Below are positions 747 to 22,306 of a DNA stretch of 64,000 nt, in pieces. The notes under the pieces are model-generated. The model was not told where the DNA came from, searched no databases, and worked only from the letters and a program-made list of their open reading frames with translations. Position 1 is the stretch's first letter. Each line of letters opens with the position of its first letter. A program made the position numbers and the translations under genes. This DNA is from Haloarcula sp. H-GB4 (GTDB lineage: Archaea > Halobacteriota > Halobacteria > Halobacteriales > Haloarculaceae), in contig NZ_JAVDDX010000006.1 in the NCBI RefSeq assembly GCF_030848575.1, forward strand, positions 1-64,000. The letters run 5' to 3'.

Positions 747-1120
747 TCCTGACCCTCCTTGTTTCGGATGGTTTCAACCTCTTCCTCTAGTTTATCTGTC
801 GCTTCCTCCATCGCAGTAGCGCGCTTGTCTGCCGGGTACTCAGAGGCTATTAAATCCCACAGAGCGACCGAGTAGAACAGTTCCTGCTCCGTGTCAACGT
901 TTGTTGCTTCCTCAACGTCTTCGACGACGGCATCAGCGATGTAGTCCAGTTCCGATCCAAGATTTAATTCCCCCGCACGCTGTTCCTGTAGTTCACGAGA
1001 TATACGCTGTTCCGTCGCTTTCAGAATGTACTCTGAAACCCCTTCTCCCGCTTTGTTAGCCTGCTTCACGATCTCTTTTCGCTGCTCTGTACTCAGCCGA
1101 ATTGTAACTTTGTCACTCAT
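743..1120 (-). CDS. Ribbon-helix-helix protein, MobC/CopG-like
   Basis: A 125-aa protein whose first 45 residues (MSDKVTIRLSTEQRKEIVKQ, then a helix with GVSEYILKATEQRI) form a clear ribbon-helix-helix pattern: a short beta strand with alternating polar residues, then two helices. In mobile elements such proteins bind DNA near oriT and help the relaxase, or repress their own operon. The open frame extends further upstream, but the ATG at 1120 starts the domain exactly and overlaps the VirB4 stop by eight bases, so I chose it. The C-terminal half is acidic and helical. The gene lies between the VirB4-like ATPase and the second small protein. Confidence 0.65.
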   Translation of the reverse strand: MSDKVTIRLSTEQRKEIVKQANKAGEGVSEYILKATEQRISRELQEQRAGELNLGSELDYIADAVVEDVEEATNVDTEQELFYSVALWDLIASEYPADKRATAMEEATDKLEEEVETIRNKEGQE

Positions 1121-4100
1121 TTGAATTCTCCGTAGTGTCAAACTCCGCATCAGTCTCTGCCTCGATACCACCGTCAGCGACAACTGCTTCTGGCTGTGTC
1201 TGGTCAAGTGCTACAGACACCACGTCCACTAATTCCTCTTCGCTGAGTCCGTTGAGGACGTGTTCAGCCTTCTCCGGGGACAATCCACGATTCGCTAGCT
1301 CTTGCTCGACTGCTTTGGAATGGACGAACTCTTCGAAATCAGCAGCGCGGGAGTCGACCTCGTGAGCAACAACGTCGAGCGTATCTTCCGCGTCAGCGTC
1401 GAGGTCAATGATCTGCTTCTCTTCCCACGACGTCTTGATCGTCAGCGGGTAGTCTCCGTGTTCGTCGACGCGAACCAGTGCTTGCGAGTAGCCCTGACCG
1501 TCACCCAGTGACTCCTTGCCGGCTTCGGCGTGCTGGATGTAGGACTGCTGTTCGTCCGTCAGTCCAGCGCTTGTTGCCGTCTCGTCGCCTAGCTCTGGCT
1601 CGCGGTGATGTACTTTGATCGGGCACATTCCCGCGATTTCCTCAGCGGCTCCCTTGTCCTCGAACTCCGACAGTGTCTGAGACAGCATCACTAGCCGCAG
1701 TCCGGCGTGGCGCTGGTGGCGAGCAATCTGGTTCAGCGACTCCAAGTTCGCGTCGTCGTTGAACAGGTAGTGAGCTTCGTCGATGATGATCTCGACCTTC
1801 TGCTGCATATTCTTGGCCTGCTGGTACAGTGTCGACAACAGCAGTTGCATGATGAACGACTGCTTGCCGAGGCCACTACCAGAGCCTTCGACCTGCTGGA
1901 GATCCAGATAGACGGCCTTGCTGCTGTCGTCGATCAGCCGCAGGTCCGACTCTTTCGAGAGGTTACCGAAGGTACTCCCCGGGCGGAACGGATGCAGCGC
2001 AATCGAGAGTTCGTTTGCGTACTGCTGGATTTTCTGCTGGGAAGATTCCGTCGTCGCTCCCGGGAACATTCCCGGCTCTTCCTGGAGGCGGTCAACGACT
2101 TCGAGGAAGTCGCTCAGGTCCGGCGAGTTCTCCGGCGTATGTGTCGATGGGTCCGCTGGGTCGATATCCGATTCAGTGAATATCTTGTCGATCAGGAACG
2201 TGATCAGGCCGCTGTGCATCTCCAGATCGACATCGCGAGATTGGAGGAAGTTCTCGATCACTCCGTACACTTCGTCTTTCTTCGCTGAGACGGGCTGCAT
2301 ATCCGGGGATTGTTCGAGCACATGCTGAGGCGTCGGATGCATCTCACACGGGTTCAGCGGCGTCTCACCGCTGATCGTGATGGTCTTTGCATCCAGCATC
2401 TTGGCGCTGCCGTGCATATCCCCGACCGGGTCGATGTAGATCTGCTTGACGTCCGACCGCTTTTTCAGCATCCGCATCGCCCGAGCCTGCGTGCCGTGGG
2501 TCTTTCCGCCGCCGGGCATCCCAGTGACCAGCTCCGAGTGACCGGTTTCCAGTTCCCACGGGTCGATCAACAGCGAGGAATCGTTGTGGCCGTGCAGTCC
2601 GTACTCGATGCCGTCCTCCATCCGCAGGTAGTTCGACGAGAACGGGAACAGCGACCCGAGTGCTTCCCCGGTCATTGAGGAGAGTCGGTTTTGTCCGAGT
2701 TCGTTGGCCCCGATGGGCGAGACAGTCACCAGTCCTGCTTCCTGCCGGCGGGTCGTTCGCTTGACCCCGCAGTTCGACGGTGAGTCTCGCAGGAGCGTTT
2801 CGAGCCGGTTCGTTTGCTTCCGGAGGTCTTCTTCGGTCTCCGCAGTCAGCCGGATGAACGCTCCGACACGGAACAGCGACGTGTGATTGCGACGGACCAT
2901 CTGCCGGATGTACTTCGCTTGGTTGACCTCCTGTTCGATATCTTCCGCTTCCAGCTCTCCTTTGTCGTTCTGTAGCATCTTCAGCGAGGAAATCCACTCT
3001 TTCATGACCGACACTGCTGTATCAGCGTCGTATGGGTCGATGTGGATTGAGACGTCGACGGCAAGGTCCGTATCCAGCAGTAGTTGCTCTAGCATTCCAC
3101 TGGTCGGATGCTCGGGATACGTCTCGATCCAGAAGCACCGGGTGTACGTCTCTTGGTCGATGAGGGCGTGGTCGGCTTCCCATTCGATATCCGTCGGCGC
3201 GACCAGTGACCGATGGTTCTCTCCCGGTCTATGCAACTGGGAGACGAAGTCGGTCTCGTCGACCTCGTAGTCGGTCCCACCGACGTCGTCGGTGTCCATG
3301 CCCTCCGCAGCGTCGTGGGCTGTGGCACCCTTGCCGTGCTTGATGAGTTCCCGAGCGGAGTACGTCACCGGGGAGACGGAGGCCGCCTCTTCGTACTCCC
3401 GCTCGGTCCGGGTTTCACAGGCCCAGTAGTCCTCAGTCAAGTGCGCCAGCTCATGCGGGCTGACCGACCGACTACGACACCGGAACATATTGTTGACTGC
3501 TCTGTCGACGGTTTCGAGCCGGTCGTGGAGTTTCTTCGCCTTGAACTCCTCTCGCTCGGCGTCAGTGAGCGTGTCACTGTCGAATCGAGTGAACAGCCGC
3601 CCAATGACCGGTATCCCAGTCAGGTAATCCGCGATGGAGTCGCTGTTCATCTGGAGATCATGGATATCGTCGTCAGTGACCCAAACGACGATGTAGTACT
3701 TGCGCTGAAGCTCAGTCTCAGTCTCAACGTTGCCGCTGTCGTCGATGTAGCGGTTGACGAACTCCATCAGGACGCCCCGGAAGATCGAATGGCTCTCCGC
3801 GTCGGGGTCGTCGAGCCGGTCGACGTGTGCCTGTATGTGGGACTCGTTGTCGACCTCGGCCGTCGTGACGTGGAGTTTCGCCCGGCCAGTCAGCGATTCA
3901 GACAGGCGTGTGAGCGATGTGACGGCTTTCTCCCATTTCTCGTCATCTTGTAGCGACATATTGGCGGGCTCGACTTCGACCGCGCCGACGTACGCTCCGT
4001 CGACGCGCTCAATGCCGTGGGGCATAACCCGCTCTAATCGCGTGACCTGCCGAGTATCCTGATTCCCTTGGCCGTGAGTGTACTGACGCTTTTTGACGAG

Positions 4101-4379
4101 CCAGAACAGTTTGACCCGCAGCCACTCGGTCAGGCGATAGTGATCTGGCCGGACTTTGTGCAGGATGTAGAGGAACACTTCCACAACCGCTGTGAGGGCC
4201 AACGTGGGGAAGAACAGCGCTGCTGGCACGAACGGCATCCCCATCGCGATGAGGAAGCCAAACGGCGGGATGAGGAACAGGATGAGTTCCCCGAGTGTGT
4301 AGTCGCCCCAGAAGTTGGTCGAATCTCCGAGCGATTCGTGGATGATGTTCGTATTGTATTCTTCTTCTGAGTCAGCCAT
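1113..4379 (-). CDS. VirB4/TraC-type conjugation ATPase with N-terminal membrane segment
   Basis: A 1088-aa ATPase expected to power pilus assembly and DNA transfer at the membrane. Residues about 30-75 are two hydrophobic segments (LILFLIPPFGFLIAMGMPFV and the next stretch), resembling a VirB3/PrgI-like membrane piece joined to the ATPase, as in several Gram-positive and archaeal systems. A VirB4 N-terminal region follows. Then comes Walker A (GMPGGGKT, about residue 620) and Walker B (VEIIIDEAH, about residue 865), followed by a motif reading RHQRHAGLRLVMLSQTL that is typical of VirB4/HerA ATPases. The length exceeds bacterial VirB4 (about 800 aa) because of the membrane part and an acidic C-terminal tail. 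The start at 4379 shares one base with the upstream stop. Confidence 0.85.
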   Translation of the reverse strand: MADSEEEYNTNIIHESLGDSTNFWGDYTLGELILFLIPPFGFLIAMGMPFVPAALFFPTLALTAVVEVFLYILHKVRPDHYRLTEWLRVKLFWLVKKRQYTHGQGNQDTRQVTRLERVMPHGIERVDGAYVGAVEVEPANMSLQDDEKWEKAVTSLTRLSESLTGRAKLHVTTAEVDNESHIQAHVDRLDDPDAESHSIFRGVLMEFVNRYIDDSGNVETETELQRKYYIVVWVTDDDIHDLQMNSDSIADYLTGIPVIGRLFTRFDSDTLTDAEREEFKAKKLHDRLETVDRAVNNMFRCRSRSVSPHELAHLTEDYWACETRTEREYEEAASVSPVTYSARELIKHGKGATAHDAAEGMDTDDVGGTDYEVDETDFVSQLHRPGENHRSLVAPTDIEWEADHALIDQETYTRCFWIETYPEHPTSGMLEQLLLDTDLAVDVSIHIDPYDADTAVSVMKEWISSLKMLQNDKGELEAEDIEQEVNQAKYIRQMVRRNHTSLFRVGAFIRLTAETEEDLRKQTNRLETLLRDSPSNCGVKRTTRRQEAGLVTVSPIGANELGQNRLSSMTGEALGSLFPFSSNYLRMEDGIEYGLHGHNDSSLLIDPWELETGHSELVTGMPGGGKTHGTQARAMRMLKKRSDVKQIYIDPVGDMHGSAKMLDAKTITISGETPLNPCEMHPTPQHVLEQSPDMQPVSAKKDEVYGVIENFLQSRDVDLEMHSGLITFLIDKIFTESDIDPADPSTHTPENSPDLSDFLEVVDRLQEEPGMFPGATTESSQQKIQQYANELSIALHPFRPGSTFGNLSKESDLRLIDDSSKAVYLDLQQVEGSGSGLGKQSFIMQLLLSTLYQQAKNMQQKVEIIIDEAHYLFNDDANLESLNQIARHQRHAGLRLVMLSQTLSEFEDKGAAEEIAGMCPIKVHHREPELGDETATSAGLTDEQQSYIQHAEAGKESLGDGQGYSQALVRVDEHGDYPLTIKTSWEEKQIIDLDADAEDTLDVVAHEVDSRAADFEEFVHSKAVEQELANRGLSPEKAEHVLNGLSEEELVDVVSVALDQTQPEAVVADGGIEAETDAEFDTTENSNE

Positions 4380-13179: not shown

Positions 13180-14456
13180 CTCAGCTTTGCACGTTAGCGT
13201 CAGCAGTTGAGTGAACGAAGAGGTGGTCGATCTCTTCCATGAGGTCATCAACGCCTCGGTCATCGTTGTCTCGAACCCACGAGAGGAGGTTGTAGACGGC
13301 TTCTTTCAGGGAGTGTTCGAGGTTCGCTCGAAGCGATGACGCTTTCGAGCGAACCGTTCCCAAGGCGCTCGAGTCAGGATCAAGACGAACGAGACTGTAG
13401 GCGGCCATCAGAAGGTGCCAGTGCCGACTGGCACCTTCGTCTGTCTGCATCTCGCAGTCTCCCAAGCCGAGATCCTGCTTCGAGTCCTCGAAGAATGTCT
13501 CGATGCGCCACCGCATCCCGTAGGAGCGAATCACGTGCTCGGTCGGTGCGTCGATTTTGTTCGTGGCGAGGTACTTGACCGGATTCTCTTCGTCTTCATC
13601 GGTTTCCTTCTCGGCGATAACCAGCTTCACGTCTCCCAGTTGGGAGACGGGAAGCTTCTTCGTCCAGATATGGTAGGTGTCGTCCTCAATATCGCGCTCA
13701 ACCGTGTCGATGCGCTTTGCCAGCGCATCGACGCGGAGCTCTTCACCGGTGTAAGTTACCTTGCGATTGCTCCGGAGCGGGCCGATCCAGTCCTTGCCGT
13801 AGGATTCGATGTGGTCAGGAAGGCCAGAATCGTGAGCGAACCACGAGTCGAAGAGGTAGGTGTCCGCAGGCACACCTACCTCTTCTTCGAGTTCCGTGAC
13901 AATCTCACGGGCGAGATCGTACTTCGTATCGTGGTCGTCGTCTTCGTCGTCTTGTTTTTCGTAGAGGCGGAAGGTGAGGGGGTAGGCGGTTTTGTCGTCA
14001 GCGTAGAAGGCGTAGATGAGGTCTTGGCCCCAGACAGTGTCATTTTCGGCGTGATCGTAGAACTGGCCGACGCCGGGGACTTCGTCCCCGGCTTTCTCGG
14101 TGATCGTGTCGTCAAGGATGATGTAGCCATCCTTCGACCAGCGCGTTTCACCGTGTTTCTGAAGTTCTTCGAGACGTTCGTGGTTGAACTGTTGTTCGTC
14201 CCAGTCGTACTCGGTGAGGAACTTGTTGAGAGCTCGTTTTCCGCTGGCTGGAATAACTTCACGTGCGATACCCGCCACGGTCTTGTTGCTGGCCGCAACA
14301 AGACCTGTGGCGTAGGTTTTCGCGTGACGTCGTTGTGCCGGTGACAGCGAGTCAAACTCGTCGAACACGCGCGTACACGAAAGGAAGTCCGTGATCGGCA
14401 TCATCCGTCTTTGCCACCGCCTACGTCACGCTACCACTTCAACGTGCAAAGCTGAG
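13180..14456 (-). mobile_element. Intact insertion sequence with 16-bp perfect terminal repeats
   Basis: The ends carry CTCAGCTTTGCACGTT (13180-13195) and its exact reverse complement (14441-14456). Both ends are flanked by CCTGTCA (13173-13179 and 14457-14463), a 7-bp target duplication that reads as 8 bp if the ambiguous terminal C is counted. The element is 1277 bp and encodes one transposase. The perfect ends and target duplication indicate a recent insertion. Confidence 0.9.
13181..14404 (-). CDS. DDE transposase, IS701/IS4-clan type
   Basis: A 407-aa transposase of the DDE superfamily. The N-terminus (PITDFLSCTRVFDEFDSLSP, then TYATGLVAASNKTVAGIARE) and the catalytic core (DDTITEKAGDEVPGVGQFYD, with DSWF after the first acidic region) resemble the IS701/DDE_5 group. 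The motif RSYGMRWRIETFFEDSKQDLGLGDC holds the final catalytic Glu in a Y-x-R-W-x-I-E-x-F-x-K-like setting. The stop codon lies in the left terminal repeat. The reading frame is intact, so the element is probably active. The exact IS family name was not verified. Confidence 0.85.
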   Translation of the reverse strand: MMPITDFLSCTRVFDEFDSLSPAQRRHAKTYATGLVAASNKTVAGIAREVIPASGKRALNKFLTEYDWDEQQFNHERLEELQKHGETRWSKDGYIILDDTITEKAGDEVPGVGQFYDHAENDTVWGQDLIYAFYADDKTAYPLTFRLYEKQDDEDDDHDTKYDLAREIVTELEEEVGVPADTYLFDSWFAHDSGLPDHIESYGKDWIGPLRSNRKVTYTGEELRVDALAKRIDTVERDIEDDTYHIWTKKLPVSQLGDVKLVIAEKETDEDEENPVKYLATNKIDAPTEHVIRSYGMRWRIETFFEDSKQDLGLGDCEMQTDEGASRHWHLLMAAYSLVRLDPDSSALGTVRSKASSLRANLEHSLKEAVYNLLSWVRDNDDRGVDDLMEEIDHLFVHSTADANVQS

Positions 14457-14635: not shown

Positions 14636-16414
14636 TCACGAGTCCTCCCAATGCGAAACGTCAAGATCAGCGCCGAATGCATCGTAGCCTAGTTCCTTGG
14701 CTACTGTAAGCGTGGTTCCGGATCCCGCAAAGGGATCAAAAACCCGCCCTGGAACAGGCTCACAATCGCAACTACAAGAGGACCAACCCACAGTTTGTCT
14801 TTGCGGAAAAGTAAATTCACGAAAGTACCCGCCAAGGACCTCTTTCGCCGCCTCAGCGTATTCTTCGATTGTTTCGTCGTTATTTCCTGCCCCATCTTGG
14901 AATTCCATCGCCTTCCCAGCATCAGAAATACCGACAGCCTGGATCGCCCGTAGATGCGTGGAATTCAAATCCGATTCAAAGAATTTCTTTATAGCACGTT
15001 GGGCCTGGTCCCGCCTTGGGCTGAGCTTATAATACTCATACTTTATTAAATGTTCCACAAGTTCGGCTTCAGAGGTTTCATTCATTAACCCACGCATATC
15101 TTTATTAGTCTGTCGACGATGCGGCGTATTGCATTTATCACAGACCGCAGGCGGGCAGCCTAGTGCAATCGCTCGCTGGACAAGCTCTCTCGGGAATGGT
15201 GCAAGGTGTCCACCAGTATTCCGGTCATGCGCTATCTCCCACACGTCTGTCGGGTTTGATCCAGTATCATAGATGTCGATGTATCCCTCGCGGTCATAGA
15301 AATAGTCATCATTTTGTACAAGATGGAAAATCCTTTCATGTCGACTAGTTAATCTATCATCCACCGGTGAAGGAACACCATTTGGCTTTGTCCAAGTGAT
15401 TTCATTTCGAATGGTCCAACCACGCTTCTGCGACTCTTGGGCGAAAAGTCCAGGAACTCCCTGAAGTGACTTATTCTTAAACGTGTCTCCAATATTGAAA
15501 AACACGGATCCAGTAGGACGGAGAAAAACTTTCCATCGTTCTAATGCGTCAACAAGATTCGATACATAATCTTCGACTGCTGTTTCCTGCCCAAGTTCTA
15601 TTTTTTCCCCTTCATCGGTGAAGTACTTCCGCTTCTTCCAGTATGGAGGGGACGTCAGGATCAAGTCGATACTGCTTTCATCAAGGGGAATTGGATCAGC
15701 ACGCTCATGGTTGGGTGAATCAGAACCTTCGGGAACTATATACCGTGCATCGGCTTCATACACCTCCGCTGTTCGGTCTTCGGGGTCCCACATATCACTC
15801 CCCTGGAATCTACGCATTGTTTCAGTAGGTGGGGGACCAATTTCGTGCTCACGAAAAAATGCTTGAAGCGTCGTATCGATGGTTTCCAGTTTGCCTTCAT
15901 CGTTCAGCAGTCGGTCCCTGATTGCAAGGTCGATTGGTTTGGGATCGTCATCTAAATCGAACTCTGGAAGAACAATTGAAGATAAATGTTCTCTGTAACT
16001 CACTTCATAGGGGAATCCAACACTCTCCTGATCCAGGTATTTTCCCAGAATTTCTGCCATTCCGGTGGCTGACCAATAATCCACCTCTCGTAGTTCGTAG
16101 TGCTTCGCAAGTTCATCATAGAGGGCGTGGGCTAATGCAGCATTTTCCATCAGGTATGTCTCTAATCTTAACACATCCTGGTTTTGTTTCGCAAGTGCGC
16201 CCCCGTCACTACTGACATCAGAATCTTGCTGGAACTGGTCAATTATTGATCCAGTATATTGGACAAATAGGTTTTCATTAAGAACGAGAGGATCAAGATG
16301 TTCCGTTAGAGTACCAGCAAACTCCTCAACCGACTCGTCAAATAAATAAAAATCTTGAAAACTTGATGGTAGGGAATACTCCTCATCAGCCATTGAGTAC
16401 ACTCGGGTAACCAT
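14636..16414 (-). CDS. DNA methyltransferase, amino-methylating (N4-C or N6-A), beta-type motif order
   Basis: A 592-aa enzyme that should transfer a methyl group from S-adenosylmethionine to an exocyclic amino group in DNA. The catalytic motif IV is TSPPYW (residues 254-259) and the SAM-binding motif I is FDPFAGSGTT near residue 570. Catalytic-before-SAM order is that of beta-class methylases, and SPPY favours N4-cytosine, though N6-adenine is possible. Residues 1-240 are an unusual extra domain, probably for target recognition or partner contact. Between the motifs lie Cys pairs (CDKCN, then CSCDC) that may bind zinc. No restriction nuclease gene adjoins it. ATG at 16393 is an alternative start. 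Confidence 0.85.
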   Translation of the reverse strand: MVTRVYSMADEEYSLPSSFQDFYLFDESVEEFAGTLTEHLDPLVLNENLFVQYTGSIIDQFQQDSDVSSDGGALAKQNQDVLRLETYLMENAALAHALYDELAKHYELREVDYWSATGMAEILGKYLDQESVGFPYEVSYREHLSSIVLPEFDLDDDPKPIDLAIRDRLLNDEGKLETIDTTLQAFFREHEIGPPPTETMRRFQGSDMWDPEDRTAEVYEADARYIVPEGSDSPNHERADPIPLDESSIDLILTSPPYWKKRKYFTDEGEKIELGQETAVEDYVSNLVDALERWKVFLRPTGSVFFNIGDTFKNKSLQGVPGLFAQESQKRGWTIRNEITWTKPNGVPSPVDDRLTSRHERIFHLVQNDDYFYDREGYIDIYDTGSNPTDVWEIAHDRNTGGHLAPFPRELVQRAIALGCPPAVCDKCNTPHRRQTNKDMRGLMNETSEAELVEHLIKYEYYKLSPRRDQAQRAIKKFFESDLNSTHLRAIQAVGISDAGKAMEFQDGAGNNDETIEEYAEAAKEVLGGYFREFTFPQRQTVGWSSCSCDCEPVPGRVFDPFAGSGTTLTVAKELGYDAFGADLDVSHWEDS

Positions 16415-16982: not shown

Positions 16983-18998
16983 TTACGATTTCTGTAATGC
17001 TTGTACAGTGCTTGCTTCTATCACCCTATCACCTTGGTCAACATCAATCAAGATGACCCCTTTCGTGTTTCGTCCAACAGAAGAGATATCGTCGACAGGA
17101 GTGTGGATCAACTGGCCATTCTGGGTGATAATACCGACAGAATCGCTGTCTTCCACACGCTCGATTGCCATGAGAGGACCATTCCGGTCGCCTGTGTCAA
17201 TATCAATCAAACCTCGCCCATATCTGGTCTGTTTGCGATACTCTCTAATTGGGGTGCGCTTGCCGTAGCCATTCCTCGTTACAGAGAGTAATTGAGCATT
17301 GGACGGATCTGAAACAACCACCATCCCTATAACCGAATCATCATCATCCAACTCGATCGACTTAATCCCCCGTGCGGATCTTCCCATGTCTCTAACTTCC
17401 TCCTCATCAAATCGTATCGCTTGGCCATTTTCAGTGGCTACGATTAAGTCAGCATCCCCCTCAGTCCAAGCAACGTCTCGAACTTCATCACTATCTTCCA
17501 ACTTAGCTGCTACAATACCAGTACTAAGAATATTTTCAAATTCTGAGGTCCTCACCCGCTTCACGAATCCATGTTTCGTTACCATGGTGAGATAGTCGTG
17601 ATCGGTCAGAGATATCATTGAGAGAACAGATTGGACCTGTTCGTCCTCGTCAAGTGAAACAAGATCGGAGAATTGTTGCCCTGTCTCAATTCGGTCTTGT
17701 TTTGGCATTTCGTGAGCACCGATTTCGTATACTTTTCCAGCACTGGTAAATAACAAGAGCAGATCTCTGGGATTTGCTACGAAAAGTGTGTCAATATCAG
17801 CATTCTCTTCTTCGTCATGGGCGCGCAAACCTTTCCCCCCTCTGTTCTGCAAATCGAATTCCGTAACAGGAGTTCGTTTGATCGTTCCTGCATCAGTTTG
17901 AATATAGAAATGGGGCTCCGAAGAAATAATGCCATGTCCAGAGAGTGCGCCAACAAGGGCTTCCAACCCATCTTTGGAAAACGAACCATGATCAGACTCA
18001 GTTGTCTTGACCCCTTCTATGGCCCTGTCCAGTTGAGCCCGTATTTCCTGTTTAGAATCAATCTCCTCAGAGAAGTCAGTCGGAATCAAGTCGCAGAGTA
18101 TTCTCATTTCCTCTAAGCTAAATTGCCCAGGACTGTTTTCAGAATGAGTAATATCGGCAGCTTGTTCAGATATTTGCTCACGGAGGTTTTGTTTTTTCTC
18201 TTTTACAGTGATAACGCCCGTCTCTCCATGGCATGGCTTACACGGTTCTAAGAGAATTGGTTTCTCCTCACTGGAACTATACTTTTGATTGCTAAGATCC
18301 TGCCCGCAAAAGGTGCGATCCAGCTTCTGATACTTCCGATGATAGATGTTATTCTCGAACCGAATATATTCTATTCCAAGATCTGAACTAGCCTTCGGGA
18401 TATCTTCGCTGTCCGGTTCTGGGACAGAAGCCTCAGAAGCCGATTTAATTTTATCAGACGAGTTGCCCTGTTGTTTTGTAGTTATTTGTTGTTTATCACT
18501 CTCGGCAGATGACGCCTCAAGTTCGGGCTGTGGAGCAATATATTCGCGTATAGAAGAATATTCATCATACTCACCGTCTTCATGCAAAATACGCAGAGTA
18601 GTGCCACTGGCATAATCCTGAACGACTTGCATACATCGTCCACAAATCTCGACCCCTCCCTCTGATTCAACAAGTAGTATATTCGTTATCGGCGATCGAG
18701 ATTCAGCATACGCTTTCCAAACCGCCAATTCAAGCGCGTGAACATCATGAGATTGTCCTTTTTGCAAGAATTGTCCAGAAGCTAATTCGTGACTGTTTGT
18801 CCCGACTGCTACTGCGTATTCTTGATTAGATTCAATCGAACTAGCCAGCTCTTCCAACTCTTCCCAGTGATCCTCACCGGATTCTGCTTGCTTCGTGTTC
18901 TCTGGTAGATCCAACTGCTCTGCGGTTAGATGGCGGACCTTTTCTTTGGATCTGTGCTTATTATCGATCGAGAGCGACGGGATATCCCAATCAGTCAT
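16983..18998 (-). CDS. Fusion of a cytidine-deaminase-like domain with a DNA gyrase A C-terminal pinwheel
   Basis: A 671-aa protein of unusual architecture. Residues about 60-155 look like a cytidine-deaminase fold: EYAVAVG, then H87-A-L-E90, then C119-G-R-C122-M-Q, which resembles the zinc site HAE...PCxxC except that the Glu is at +3 instead of +2. Residues about 210-260 hold a second possible zinc site (C231, C253-x-x-C256). Residues about 360-671 are six tandem blades of the GyrA C-terminal DNA-wrapping domain, including a GyrA-box-like QNRGGKG (385-391). The gyrase catalytic tyrosine region is absent, so it cannot cut DNA as gyrase does. The start at 18998 overlaps the upstream gene stop by eight bases. 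Confidence 0.75.
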   Translation of the reverse strand: MTDWDIPSLSIDNKHRSKEKVRHLTAEQLDLPENTKQAESGEDHWEELEELASSIESNQEYAVAVGTNSHELASGQFLQKGQSHDVHALELAVWKAYAESRSPITNILLVESEGGVEICGRCMQVVQDYASGTTLRILHEDGEYDEYSSIREYIAPQPELEASSAESDKQQITTKQQGNSSDKIKSASEASVPEPDSEDIPKASSDLGIEYIRFENNIYHRKYQKLDRTFCGQDLSNQKYSSSEEKPILLEPCKPCHGETGVITVKEKKQNLREQISEQAADITHSENSPGQFSLEEMRILCDLIPTDFSEEIDSKQEIRAQLDRAIEGVKTTESDHGSFSKDGLEALVGALSGHGIISSEPHFYIQTDAGTIKRTPVTEFDLQNRGGKGLRAHDEEENADIDTLFVANPRDLLLLFTSAGKVYEIGAHEMPKQDRIETGQQFSDLVSLDEDEQVQSVLSMISLTDHDYLTMVTKHGFVKRVRTSEFENILSTGIVAAKLEDSDEVRDVAWTEGDADLIVATENGQAIRFDEEEVRDMGRSARGIKSIELDDDDSVIGMVVVSDPSNAQLLSVTRNGYGKRTPIREYRKQTRYGRGLIDIDTGDRNGPLMAIERVEDSDSVGIITQNGQLIHTPVDDISSVGRNTKGVILIDVDQGDRVIEASTVQALQKS

Positions 18999-19593
18999 AT
19001 TTATCAAAGGAATCTTTAGTGATATTCGAGTCACCGGTCTTATATAGGTGGGTGAAGTCCCTCCCGCCAAGTTCGTATCCAAACTCCTCTACGAAGGCTT
19101 CTACAACCGTGAAAGCGGAAGGATCGTCCGAAGTAAATGCATAATCACGGAATAAGAAAGCCGCGAGTGATTCAACAGGGATTTTTGACCCATCAGCCAA
19201 TTCATGTCGGGCAAGTTTCCAATGTTCATCTGTTAAGGCCCATTTTGAATTATGACCCGACTGCTCAATCTCTGCAATCTTTAGTAGAGGGGATGTTGAC
19301 CTCACTGAGGAAGGAGCGTATGTCCCTGCAACATTTTGATTGAACCACATGAGATCGATTGAGTCGGTCTCAGATTCATCGAAGGGAACAAAATAGGGTG
19401 TATCAGATTCGTCTCGTTTGATCCTAAAATAGTCATCAAAAAACTCATTGTACGGAAAGTTCAGATTCACAGTCCGCCCTTTTACCGCAGACTGCTGTTG
19501 TAGACAGAGATAGCCCGGGAACAACCGGTGAATCTGATGGCTAATAAGTCGATGTACACAATCTCGAACAGTGGTAGGATTCAGCGTGTACAT
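18991..19593 (-). CDS. Hypothetical protein, 200 aa, paired with the deaminase-gyrase fusion
   Basis: A 200-aa soluble protein without motifs I recognise. The sequence is mixed alpha/beta with several aromatic-rich stretches (FFDDYFRIKRDESDTPYF) and an acidic C-terminus. It overlaps the following gene by eight bases (ATGACTGA), so both are very likely co-translated and act together. A hairpin lies between this gene and the one upstream, so this pair may be its own transcription unit within the island. Confidence 0.55.
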   Translation of the reverse strand: MYTLNPTTVRDCVHRLISHQIHRLFPGYLCLQQQSAVKGRTVNLNFPYNEFFDDYFRIKRDESDTPYFVPFDESETDSIDLMWFNQNVAGTYAPSSVRSTSPLLKIAEIEQSGHNSKWALTDEHWKLARHELADGSKIPVESLAAFLFRDYAFTSDDPSAFTVVEAFVEEFGYELGGRDFTHLYKTGDSNITKDSFDKYD

Positions 19594-19681: not shown

Positions 19682-20125
19682 TCATTGCTCTTCCCATTCT
19701 TCTTTGATTTCTAATGTCAATTCACTCAATGGATCCTCATCTTTTGGACCAAAGACTCGGTTATATACTTCCTCGACACCAGCATTCGCATACTCTTCTG
19801 CGATACGATAGACTGACCGTTGATCACGGAGAACCTGGGGATTGCGCTCCTCTTCTACAGCTACTGCCTCTATAATTGCTTGCTGGGTATCAGAAAGTCG
19901 AGAACGGCCAAAAAATGCGAGCTCATCATTTGTGGTTTGGCGCATTGCATATTTGCGCCCATACCCTACACAGAAGACGAAAATCTCGTGATTTTCAGCC
20001 TGGTATAGTGGCGAATTCTCGGATTCTTGGAGTTCCGTGAACATATCATGTTGTTCACGCTCTATATGGATGTCACGGCGCGGCTCAGTAGATTCATAGT
20101 CACTTTCCGTCTTAGTATTACTCAT
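19682..20125 (-). CDS. Dnd-system-associated small protein (dnd_assoc_4-like)
   Basis: A 147-aa protein with the pattern R-D-I-H-I-E-R-E-Q near residue 18, then IFVFCVGYGRKYAMR, a Q-A-I-I-E-A-V-A-V-E helix, and EEYANAGVEEVYNRVF near residue 115. This matches what I remember of the small family called dnd system-associated protein 4, found beside DNA phosphorothioation genes. Its biochemical role is not known to me. It overlaps the DndD-like gene by four bases (ATGA), so the two products probably work together. No dndA or dndC gene is in the window, so the link to sulfur modification is by family only. Confidence 0.6.
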   Translation of the reverse strand: MSNTKTESDYESTEPRRDIHIEREQHDMFTELQESENSPLYQAENHEIFVFCVGYGRKYAMRQTTNDELAFFGRSRLSDTQQAIIEAVAVEEERNPQVLRDQRSVYRIAEEYANAGVEEVYNRVFGPKDEDPLSELTLEIKEEWEEQ

Positions 20126-22131
20126 CGTTCAACCACCTCCGTAACACCAGCCTGGTAGTCTAAATGGTATTCATTAGCCACTTCATCCGCGATAAATGCA
20201 CGAACATCCTCACTGTATTCGACGTCCGTCATCAGGAAGGTTACCTGAGTGTCCTCCAGATAGTCTGGAACATTTTGAGCAATCAGCTTTTTTGGCTCGC
20301 TTGAAATACGTCCCAATGGGGTATCGATAATGATTGGTGCGCTAAAACCCGATATCTTGGAGAGTGCTGTCATGAATGAGAGCGCAAGCACCTGACGTTC
20401 TCCAGCAGCCAAGGATCCCAAATTCTTCCGTCCATCGGCATCATATAATTTCACTTCGTATTTATCAGTCAAAACAATCTCATAATCGTCATCTTTCCAA
20501 ATTAGGTCGTTGTAATACTGCTCCAGTCTCTCTTCAGTTTGTGAACGAACTTGACCTAAAATGTCTTCCTTAATGTCATTGATTTCATCCGATGCATCAC
20601 TGATAAACAAGCTCTTTTCCACTAATTTTTGATTTTCTTTCTTTTGTTTAGCAGCCTCACGCCATTCCTCCCGGCGGTCGTCTATGACCTGTTCTTGAGA
20701 CTCAATTTTGCCATTCAATTCTCCCAACTCTTGATTCATTTCATCAATCCTTTCGGAAATTCGTTGGCGTTGTTTTTCCAATTCAACTGCTTTTTCGTTA
20801 TCTATTGTGTCTATGTCCTCGAGCTGACTTGCGATCCGAAATAGCTCTGACTCTTTTTCGTCAATCCAATCTTGTGTTTCATTGAGCTCTTTCTTATCTT
20901 CAAGCAGCTCGTTTACATACGATTCTCCTTGTGAGAGTGCCCGTTGGATTCGAAGTTTCCCAGAGATCTCGGAGTGGCCATTCGATCGAATCTCATCTTC
21001 GATACTCGTGATTTCCGCATGTGCGTCTGTACCTTCTGTGAGATCAGCCCCACAAATACAGCGCTCCTGTGAGAGAAGTCCCTCAATTAGCTCCTCACTC
21101 ACTCCTTGTAAACCGTCATCTGAGGCTTCATATTCTTCTATTGCCTCAATCGCGTAGGAAATTGCGTCTGAGTTGAAAGATACTGCTCCAGCTTGAGCCA
21201 AACTACTACCGACATTTGCCCTATTCTGAGTCAGCTGGTCCTCTTTTTCCTCAACTTTTCCCTCAAGATATTCACGTCGTTGTTGCTTTTCTCGGACATC
21301 ATCATCCCCACTACCAGAGAGAGAGTCATTGATAGATTGAATTTTACTCTTTGCCTCACCTATATCTTCTTTTAGGGTTTTCCGTTCGCTTTCTAATCGC
21401 TCAAGTTCCTGTTCAGCTTTTTCTTTTCGATCTTCCAAATTTGCGACATCCTCACCACTACTGGAAGTTTCTTTTTCGTAATCACGTTTGACTTCCTCAA
21501 GATGATCATCGGCCTCGTTCAATAGCTCAACATGTGAAACATCAAGGACCGCCTCTTTGACTCGGTCCGCATATCCTTCTTCAAAAAATTCGTCGAGTTG
21601 CTCACCGTCAAAAAGGAAGTATTGATGGACTCGAGTCGGGAGAATTTCATGAAGAATGTTTTCAGGTTCGGCAATTGGCTCCCAGTCATTACCACCGAAT
21701 CGTTGCCGAAGTGTGAGTTCGCCCAGTGAATTTGTGTACTCAGGTTCGCCATCTGGCCCAACCGACGACTGCTTGACTGTCGTGAACGTTCGGCGAAACG
21801 CATATTTTGGTTTATCTTTCCCAAGCCTGATTTCTACGTATCCTTCCGCTGATTCCCCCGGATCTAAGGATTCAAGCTTGCGTTTAGAGATATACGGATC
21901 AGTTTCTAGTTCCGCTCCACCTCTTGAATCCGTATGAGCTTCCTCCCGGTAGAAGCACAAGGTTATAGCATTCAAAATATTCGACTTTCCAGCACCGTTT
22001 TGTCCTTCTATTACATTGATATTTTTTTCAGACGTCACCTCAAGGGGTATTTCCGTTTTGTCTTTGTACTGACGATAGTCTTTCAGGATCAGCTCAAAAA
22101 TCTGTATGTTATTCATTAGTATCGGAGGCAT
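20122..22131 (-). CDS. DndD-like SMC/Rad50-type ATPase
   Basis: A 669-aa ATPase. Walker A is GQNGAGKS near residue 45. Two long coiled-coil arms (about 200-345 and 395-510) flank a tip with RCICGADL (about residue 358), a variant of the Rad50-like Cys hook. The C-terminal half holds an ABC signature (LAAGERQVLALSF) and Walker B/D-loop IIIDTPLGRISSEP; the DTPLGR signature is typical of DndD. DndD acts as a DNA-dependent ATPase in phosphorothioation, possibly opening DNA. Here it is placed with a helicase and a methyltransferase instead of DndA/DndC. ATG 22116 is an alternative start, with the motif beginning at NNIQIF. Confidence 0.75.
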   Translation of the reverse strand: MPPILMNNIQIFELILKDYRQYKDKTEIPLEVTSEKNINVIEGQNGAGKSNILNAITLCFYREEAHTDSRGGAELETDPYISKRKLESLDPGESAEGYVEIRLGKDKPKYAFRRTFTTVKQSSVGPDGEPEYTNSLGELTLRQRFGGNDWEPIAEPENILHEILPTRVHQYFLFDGEQLDEFFEEGYADRVKEAVLDVSHVELLNEADDHLEEVKRDYEKETSSSGEDVANLEDRKEKAEQELERLESERKTLKEDIGEAKSKIQSINDSLSGSGDDDVREKQQRREYLEGKVEEKEDQLTQNRANVGSSLAQAGAVSFNSDAISYAIEAIEEYEASDDGLQGVSEELIEGLLSQERCICGADLTEGTDAHAEITSIEDEIRSNGHSEISGKLRIQRALSQGESYVNELLEDKKELNETQDWIDEKESELFRIASQLEDIDTIDNEKAVELEKQRQRISERIDEMNQELGELNGKIESQEQVIDDRREEWREAAKQKKENQKLVEKSLFISDASDEINDIKEDILGQVRSQTEERLEQYYNDLIWKDDDYEIVLTDKYEVKLYDADGRKNLGSLAAGERQVLALSFMTALSKISGFSAPIIIDTPLGRISSEPKKLIAQNVPDYLEDTQVTFLMTDVEYSEDVRAFIADEVANEYHLDYQAGVTEVVER

Positions 22132-22306
22132 CTACGTTGCTGTGATCATCAACTAGTGATTTGTACTCTTCCGTATATTCTCCGCGAGGGTCATCTAGGA
22201 TGTTGCGTTCATGTCGAAGTACACTCTCCAGAAATGATCTCATATCCTCATCCTCGACCTCACTTAGCCGTTCCATAATAAGAGAATGTACCTCCGAGTC
22301 GTGCAT
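22109..22306 (-). CDS. Small acidic protein, 65 aa, upstream of the DndD-like ATPase
   Basis: A 65-aa helical, highly acidic protein (HSLIMERLSEVEDEDMRSFL, then SVLRHERNILDDPRGEY). Its 3' end overlaps the ATPase start by up to 23 bases, which indicates coupling. The frame is open further upstream, but the first plausible ATG after the helicase stop is at 22306. I do not recognise it. Its position suggests a small partner or regulator of the ATPase. Confidence 0.5.
   Translation of the reverse strand: MHDSEVHSLIMERLSEVEDEDMRSFLESVLRHERNILDDPRGEYTEEYKSLVDDHSNVDASDTNE

What the first reader, a model, noticed from the sequence alone, without database searches (positions are those of the whole stretch)
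16983..18998. Cytidine-deaminase-like domain fused to a gyrase A C-terminal pinwheel
The C-terminal 310 residues carry the blades and a GyrA-box-like QNRGGKG that let GyrA wrap DNA, but the catalytic tyrosine half of gyrase is missing. In its place are a deaminase-like zinc site and a second Cys cluster. The H87-A-L-E90 spacing shifts the usual HAE glutamate by one residue, so the domain may be a binding fold and not an active enzyme. A protein that wraps DNA and is tied to a nucleobase or nucleotide-sensing fold could act as topology sensor or decoy of gyrase in defence. I know of no described protein with this order.
Basis: partly seen in the sequence, partly recalled or inferred. Interest (0 to 1): 0.9.

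Follow-up and report, generated by a model that had tools for sequence, protein, structure and literature searches.

The report
Gyrase-tail pseudo-deaminase in archaeal defence cassette
A salt-loving archaeon carries a protein that joins a dead deaminase fold and a zinc finger to the DNA-wrapping tail of gyrase, and the gene always sits inside a DNA-methylation-linked antiviral cassette, which suggests the cell borrowed gyrase's DNA-wrapping tool for defence.

Summary
The C-terminus is a six-bladed GyrA CTD with a GyrA box; the gyrase catalytic half is absent. Residues 42-142 have the cytidine-deaminase fold (family profile hits B. subtilis CDA at 3e-14; fold Z about 11). Zn ligands H87/C119/C122 are kept, but the catalytic Glu is Leu/Ile/Val in every relative, so it is a pseudo-deaminase. 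The 'second Cys cluster' is an H-C-C-C zinc finger.

The key finding is context. The gene follows a PbeABCD (CxC ABC-ATPase/DndE) cassette, with a SPPY-type DNA methyltransferase next, and the genome has no dndC. Of 391 haloarchaeal genomes, exactly five have a GyrA CTD outside GyrA. All five lie in Pbe-type cassettes of at least three PbeC sublineages, and their CTDs form one clade. The pseudo-deaminase co-occurs 13/13 with a conserved 200-aa protein X, with an 8-bp gene overlap in all 12 loci checked, beside a methyltransferase.

Best reading: X plus the pseudo-deaminase are accessory subunits of the methylation module, and some cassettes gained a gyrase-derived DNA-wrapping arm. Component identity is well supported; the mechanism is inferred. 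New variant of a known kind.

The parts
16983..18998 (-). Fusion gene: pseudo-cytidine-deaminase + zinc finger + helical repeat + GyrA CTD (671 aa)
18573..18875 (-). CDA-fold domain (residues 42-142); Zn ligands H87, C119, C122; catalytic Glu replaced by L89
18219..18371 (-). Zinc finger H220-C231-C253-C256 (residues 210-260)
   Evidence: invariant in 5 relatives; same H..CG..CxxC motif in other haloarchaeal proteins
17934..18161 (-). Helical repeat region (residues 280-355), shared with many small haloarchaeal proteins
16986..17933 (-). GyrA CTD, six blades, GyrA box QNRGGKG (residues 356-671)
18991..19593 (-). Protein X (200 aa), obligate partner gene; its stop overlaps the fusion ATG by 8 bp
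19682..20125 (-). PbeD / DndE-like (dnd_assoc_4)
   Evidence: TIGR04062 E=3e-9, below its curated cut-off; PADLOC PbeD 0.014
20122..22131 (-). PbeC, CxC-type ABC ATPase
   Evidence: PADLOC PbeC 5e-207
22109..22306 (-). PbeB-like small protein (65 aa from internal ATG)
   Evidence: homologous small ORF between PbeA and PbeC in the other cassettes; length matches the 66 aa given in PMC6459918
22347..24368 (-). PbeA, HKD nuclease/SF2 helicase
   Evidence: PADLOC PbeA 1e-230
14636..16414 (-). DNA methyltransferase with TSPPY motif (N4-cytosine or N6-adenine class), 568 bp downstream of the fusion gene
   Evidence: PF01555 3e-34; PADLOC MTase_II 9e-101; same family next to X/CDA in the other loci

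Best explanation
The protein is an accessory component of a methylation-coupled PbeABCD (CxC ABC-ATPase/DndE) antiviral cassette. Its N-terminal pseudo-deaminase keeps the Zn-stabilised CDA fold but cannot deaminate; translationally coupled to X, it most likely forms a stable X-pseudodeaminase complex that serves the neighbouring methyltransferase (docking or recognition of the modified/unmodified site). In this and four related proteins a zinc finger plus a haloarchaeal GyrA CTD serve as a DNA-wrapping arm. It would hold and bend target DNA in a chiral wrap so that the DndE/CxC scanning complex and the PbeA helicase-nuclease act on invading, unmethylated, replicating DNA. Shown by computation: domains, loss of catalytic Glu, cassette membership, pairing with X and methyltransferase, absence of dndC, conservation of most DNA-contacting arginines. 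Inferred: complex formation, DNA wrapping by this copy, methylation as the self mark, direction of the effect.
For: PbeA/B/C/D homologues directly upstream. The same cassette occurs across haloarchaeal families. Exactly 5/391 genomes have a GyrA CTD outside GyrA; all five lie within a few kb of PbeA and PbeC of three different PADLOC PbeC models, although real PbeA occurs in only about 15% of genomes. The five CTDs form one clade apart from 34 haloarchaeal GyrAs. X and the CDA-like gene occur in the same 13 of 391 genomes, overlapping by exactly 8 bp in all 12 loci checked, with a methyltransferase of one family in each. No dndC in this genome or in 12 of 14 carriers checked, so PT is not the mark. 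DNA-contact arginines of blades 4, 5 and 6 and the GyrA-box Arg/Lys are invariant in all five (sites from PMC7210945). PbeABCD is an experimentally shown antiviral system that blocks replication (PMC6459918).
Against: No experiment on any of these proteins. Several conserved basic positions of GyrA CTD (window 397, 401, 439, 441, 601) are lost in all five. Most MTase-X-CDA cassettes lack the GyrA CTD, so it is not essential to the system. In L043/L044 the MTase-X-CDA triad stands beside a GHKL-type ATPase and not PbeABCD, so X/CDA is tied to the methyltransferase more than to Pbe. X has no recognisable fold.
Confidence: 0.5

Rival explanations
1. Gyrase decoy/guard: the CTD is bait for viral proteins that target gyrase, and engagement releases the Pbe effector.
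For: CTD derives from haloarchaeal GyrA (47% identity to the host's own GyrA CTD against 35% to E. coli); defence location; GyrA-box identical to the host's own.
Against: DNA-contact arginines of blades 4-6 and the GyrA box are kept, which a bait surface would not require; no archaeal viral inhibitor aimed at the CTD is known to me; the five copies are diverged from the host GyrAs, not kept similar to them.
Confidence: 0.15
2. Active deaminase effector: the N-terminal domain deaminates DNA or nucleotides in infected cells, guided by the GyrA arm.
For: CDA fold and all three Zn ligands conserved; E90 invariant.
Against: The catalytic Glu position is L/I/V in every member; E90 aligns with the residue after it. 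The ribose-binding Asn of CDA (N-x-E motif) is absent in all.
Confidence: 0.05
3. Chromatin-like housekeeping or regulatory role: a DNA-wrapping protein (as the free GyrA CTD of Borrelia) that compacts or regulates the mobile element, beside the Pbe genes by chance.
For: A free GyrA CTD as DNA-binding protein is known in Borrelia (Knight and Samuels 1999, listed in PMC7210945); one relative is on a named plasmid.
Against: Five of five copies lie next to PbeA/PbeC of different sublineages; translational coupling to X in the fused forms.
Confidence: 0.1
4. Methylation-status reader: the X/pseudo-deaminase pair binds the methylated or unmethylated cytosine base, using the old cytosine-binding fold, and licenses or blocks Pbe.
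For: Pairing with a SPPY methyltransferase in the loci examined, with two different effector types; a methylase-linked gene for modified-DNA discrimination is proposed for CxC systems (PMC10853773).
Against: Base-binding residues not tested; CDA-fold pocket lacks the canonical ribose contacts; no structure of X.
Confidence: 0.2

Closest known systems
PbeABCD / CxC ABC-ATPase-DndE defence systems (PMC6459918; PMC10853773)
   Same: PbeA, PbeB, PbeC and PbeD homologues in the same order; methyltransferase coupling is described for part of the CxC systems
   Different: No dndC; adds X and the pseudo-deaminase/GyrA-CTD protein, which I found in neither paper (text search for gyrase and deaminase)
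DNA gyrase subunit A (GyrA)
   Same: Six-blade CTD, GyrA box, most DNA-contact arginines; closest to haloarchaeal GyrA
   Different: No catalytic Tyr/winged-helix domain, no coiled coil; the host has a separate normal GyrA
Tetrameric cytidine deaminase (CDA, B. subtilis type)
   Same: Fold, order of secondary structure, three Zn ligands (His in place of the first Cys)
   Different: Catalytic Glu and ribose-binding Asn lost
Free GyrA CTD of Borrelia burgdorferi (Knight and Samuels 1999)
   Same: GyrA CTD outside gyrase, presumed DNA-binding on its own
   Different: Borrelia's is made from gyrA itself; here it is a separate, fused, diverged gene in a defence cassette

Membership tests
DNA gyrase subunit A | GyrA CTD beta-pinwheel with GyrA box | tested here: met
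   PF03989 4.3e-59; QNRGGKG
DNA gyrase subunit A | Catalytic winged-helix/Tyr and tower/coiled-coil domains | tested here: not met
   Only PF03989 matches; GyrA models match residues 335-663 only and score far below cut-off
Cytidine deaminase (PF00383) | CDA fold | tested here: met
   Profile E=3.2e-14; Z about 11 over about 100 residues; local pLDDT is only 57-77
Cytidine deaminase (PF00383) | Zn ligands [H/C]...CxxC | tested here: met
   H87, C119, C122 invariant
Cytidine deaminase (PF00383) | Catalytic Glu in [HC]AE | tested here: not met
   L/I/V in all members
Cytidine deaminase (PF00383) | Ribose-binding N-x-E motif | tested here: not met
   Asn in no member; Glu only in the L043/L044 pair
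Cytidine deaminase (PF00383) | Deaminase activity | not testable with these tools
   -
PbeABCD / CxC-DndE system | PbeA, PbeC and DndE-like PbeD in one operon | tested here: met
PbeABCD / CxC-DndE system | Small PbeB between PbeA and PbeC | tested here: met
   65-aa ORF, homologous ORFs at the same place in relatives
PbeABCD as first described (PT-coupled) | DndCDEA phosphorothioation genes | tested here: not met
   No DndC match in the genome
CxC-DndE system, methylase-coupled subtype | DNA methyltransferase in the cassette | tested here: met
   PF01555 3e-34; also in relatives
CxC-DndE system, methylase-coupled subtype | MTaX1-domain gene | tested here: inconclusive
   X could be it, but no model or sequence of MTaX1 was available

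The most novel reading that the evidence does not exclude
A gyrase-derived DNA-wrapping arm captures or stabilises the topological state of replicating viral DNA (for example positively supercoiled DNA ahead of forks), while the X/pseudo-deaminase pair reads methylation, so that PbeABCD stalls replication of unmethylated DNA without cleavage: a topology-and-modification double check.
Probability: 0.12. Interest if true: 0.85.

Novelty: new variant of a known kind. Interest (0 to 1): 0.62.

Why it matters
How PbeABCD stops viral replication without visible cleavage is an open question in the literature. A cassette-specific component with a DNA-wrapping domain borrowed from gyrase gives that question a concrete handle. 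It also shows reuse of a GyrA CTD outside topoisomerases and a conserved family of dead cytidine deaminases tied to a methyltransferase.

Tried and rejected
Active deaminase: rejected on loss of catalytic Glu and ribose contacts. Other beta-propeller origin: rejected. Pseudogene or split gyrA: rejected, since intact gyrA lies elsewhere in the genome and the fusion is conserved in two other genomes. Viral origin: scans of IMG/VR with the CDA and CTD alignments gave nothing; phage-record hits cover the CTD region only and look like ordinary topoisomerases. The full-length AlphaFold model from six sequences is poor for the CTD (pLDDT about 25-45) and was used only for residues 42-142. The structure of X failed (pLDDT 36), and family and PDB searches with X gave only a weak match to designed Scone proteins (E=0.003), not pursued. 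G026 seemed to have a second CTD, but it is one interrupted match within GyrA. The 2020 paper on ABC ATPases and CxC systems, reference 24 of PMC10853773 and the cited source for MTaX1, is not in the library, so a prior mention there cannot be excluded.

Full report
Observation. The gene is on the minus strand, ATG at 18998, 671 aa. The mechanical TTG start at 19082 is unlikely, because relatives align from the MTD start. Domains: CDA-like fold 42-142; linker; zinc finger H220-C231-C253-C256; two-part helical repeat 280-355; GyrA CTD 356-671.

GyrA part. PF03989 scores 4.3e-59 and no topoisomerase catalytic model matches. PDB GyrA CTDs match at 1e-57. The host genome holds an ordinary 822-aa gyrA frame on another contig. 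The CTD is 47% identical to the host's GyrA and 35% to E. coli GyrA. Over 391 Halobacteria genomes, the only genomes with a GyrA CTD outside GyrA are G000 (this window), G118, G219, G079 and G299. Their CTDs form one clade (99/95; 100% of bootstrap trees), with the caution that branches are long and the root is drawn at the midpoint. Of the arginines reported as DNA contacts in Salmonella GyrA-CTD (PMC7210945), the blade 4, 5 and 6 equivalents (window R536, R592, R643) are kept in all five, and blade 2 (R436) is kept as Arg or Lys in four. The blade 3 Arg is not conserved even in haloarchaeal GyrA, and the blade 1 equivalent cannot be placed. Five basic positions conserved in GyrA are lost in all five. 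I infer that DNA binding is retained, possibly with altered geometry.

Deaminase part. A profile of ten relatives matches B. subtilis CDA at 3.2e-14, PF00383 matches all ten, and the modelled domain aligns to CDAs with Z about 11, rmsd 2.6 over 100 residues, where CDAs fill the top of the list. The model is only moderately confident there (pLDDT about 57-77), but sequence and fold agree. Compared with housekeeping haloarchaeal CDA (HAEE...PCGMC), the family reads HA[L/I/V]E (HPLE and HELE in two branches)...C[GN]xC. The Zn ligands stay, the catalytic Glu is lost in all members, and the invariant E90 is the following residue. The CDA ribose Asn is also lost. It is most likely a pseudo-enzyme.

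Context. Upstream on the same strand lie PbeA, PbeB, PbeC, PbeD and protein X; a methyltransferase with TSPPY follows after 568 bp. The island is 43-45% GC against 51-60% around it. Relatives come in three forms: PbeABCD-MTase-X-CDA with a free 160-aa CDA-like protein (for example Haloarcula amylovorans, Halorubrum salsamenti, Halovivax asiaticus and Halogranum rubrum); X-CDA::Zn::GyrACTD fusions (this window, G118, G219 = Natronomonas aquatica); and Zn::GyrACTD without the CDA domain, next to PbeA and PbeC of other sublineages (G079 = Halorhabdus tiamatea plasmid pHTIA; G299, which also has a methyltransferase). X and the CDA-like gene occur in the same 13 of 391 genomes (1.5e-24 if placed at random, ignoring shared descent) and overlap by exactly 8 bp in all 12 loci checked. 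In G007 and G220 the MTase-X-CDA triad stands with a GHKL-type ATPase in place of PbeABCD (the GHKL label is read by eye from the sequence). So X-CDA belongs to the methyltransferase module, and the GyrA arm belongs to Pbe-type cassettes. No dndC occurs here, and 12 of 14 carrier genomes lack it, so these are methylation-coupled and not PT-coupled systems. Real PbeA (E<1e-130) is found in roughly 15% of the 391 genomes; weaker hits in frames of about 1,300 aa look like a different family.

Mechanism. PbeABCD stops SNJ1 replication without visible DNA cleavage in a PT-coupled system (PMC6459918), though others argue for cleavage by the HKD nuclease of PbeA (PMC10853773). I propose that X and the pseudo-deaminase dock on, or read for, the methyltransferase, and that the GyrA CTD with its zinc finger wraps target DNA for the CxC/DndE scanning complex. 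The identities and linkages are shown by computation; every functional step is inferred.

Literature. PMC10853773 and PMC6459918 contain no mention of gyrase or deaminase. PMC10853773 mentions an MTaX1 gene in methylase-linked CxC systems, which X might be (untested). A relevant 2020 paper on ABC ATPases is not held, so absence of prior description is not proven.

Noticed in passing
L043:9605-15385; L044:4306-10071: MTase-X-CDA triad next to a 722-aa GHKL-ATPase-like protein and a 255-aa partner instead of PbeABCD: possibly another methylation-coupled defence system.
   Followed up: partly
L032:29-286 and G219:C64:13688-14071: A second, split copy of X beside the methyltransferase in Natronomonas aquatica, without a detected CDA-like partner.
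   Followed up: partly
L151:11935-25494: Halorhabdus tiamatea pHTIA: GyrA-CTD protein beside a PbeA-like gene separated from PbeC by an IS66 transposase, then a DUF3578 gene; a protein of about 670-690 aa with repeats on the opposite strand.
   Followed up: no
window 13181-14404: IS701-family transposase just downstream of the methyltransferase, between the cassette and VirB4-like conjugation genes (1113-4379).
   Followed up: no
window residues 280-355 of the fusion; L073-L093: Widespread small haloarchaeal proteins (about 95-135 aa, FTKEELxAIC...FRKxDLxAI) share the helical repeat of the fusion's middle region.
   Followed up: partly
L069, L070, L075, L081: Other haloarchaeal proteins carry the same H..CG..CxxC zinc finger behind a region that looks AbrB/SpoVT-like by eye.
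   Followed up: no
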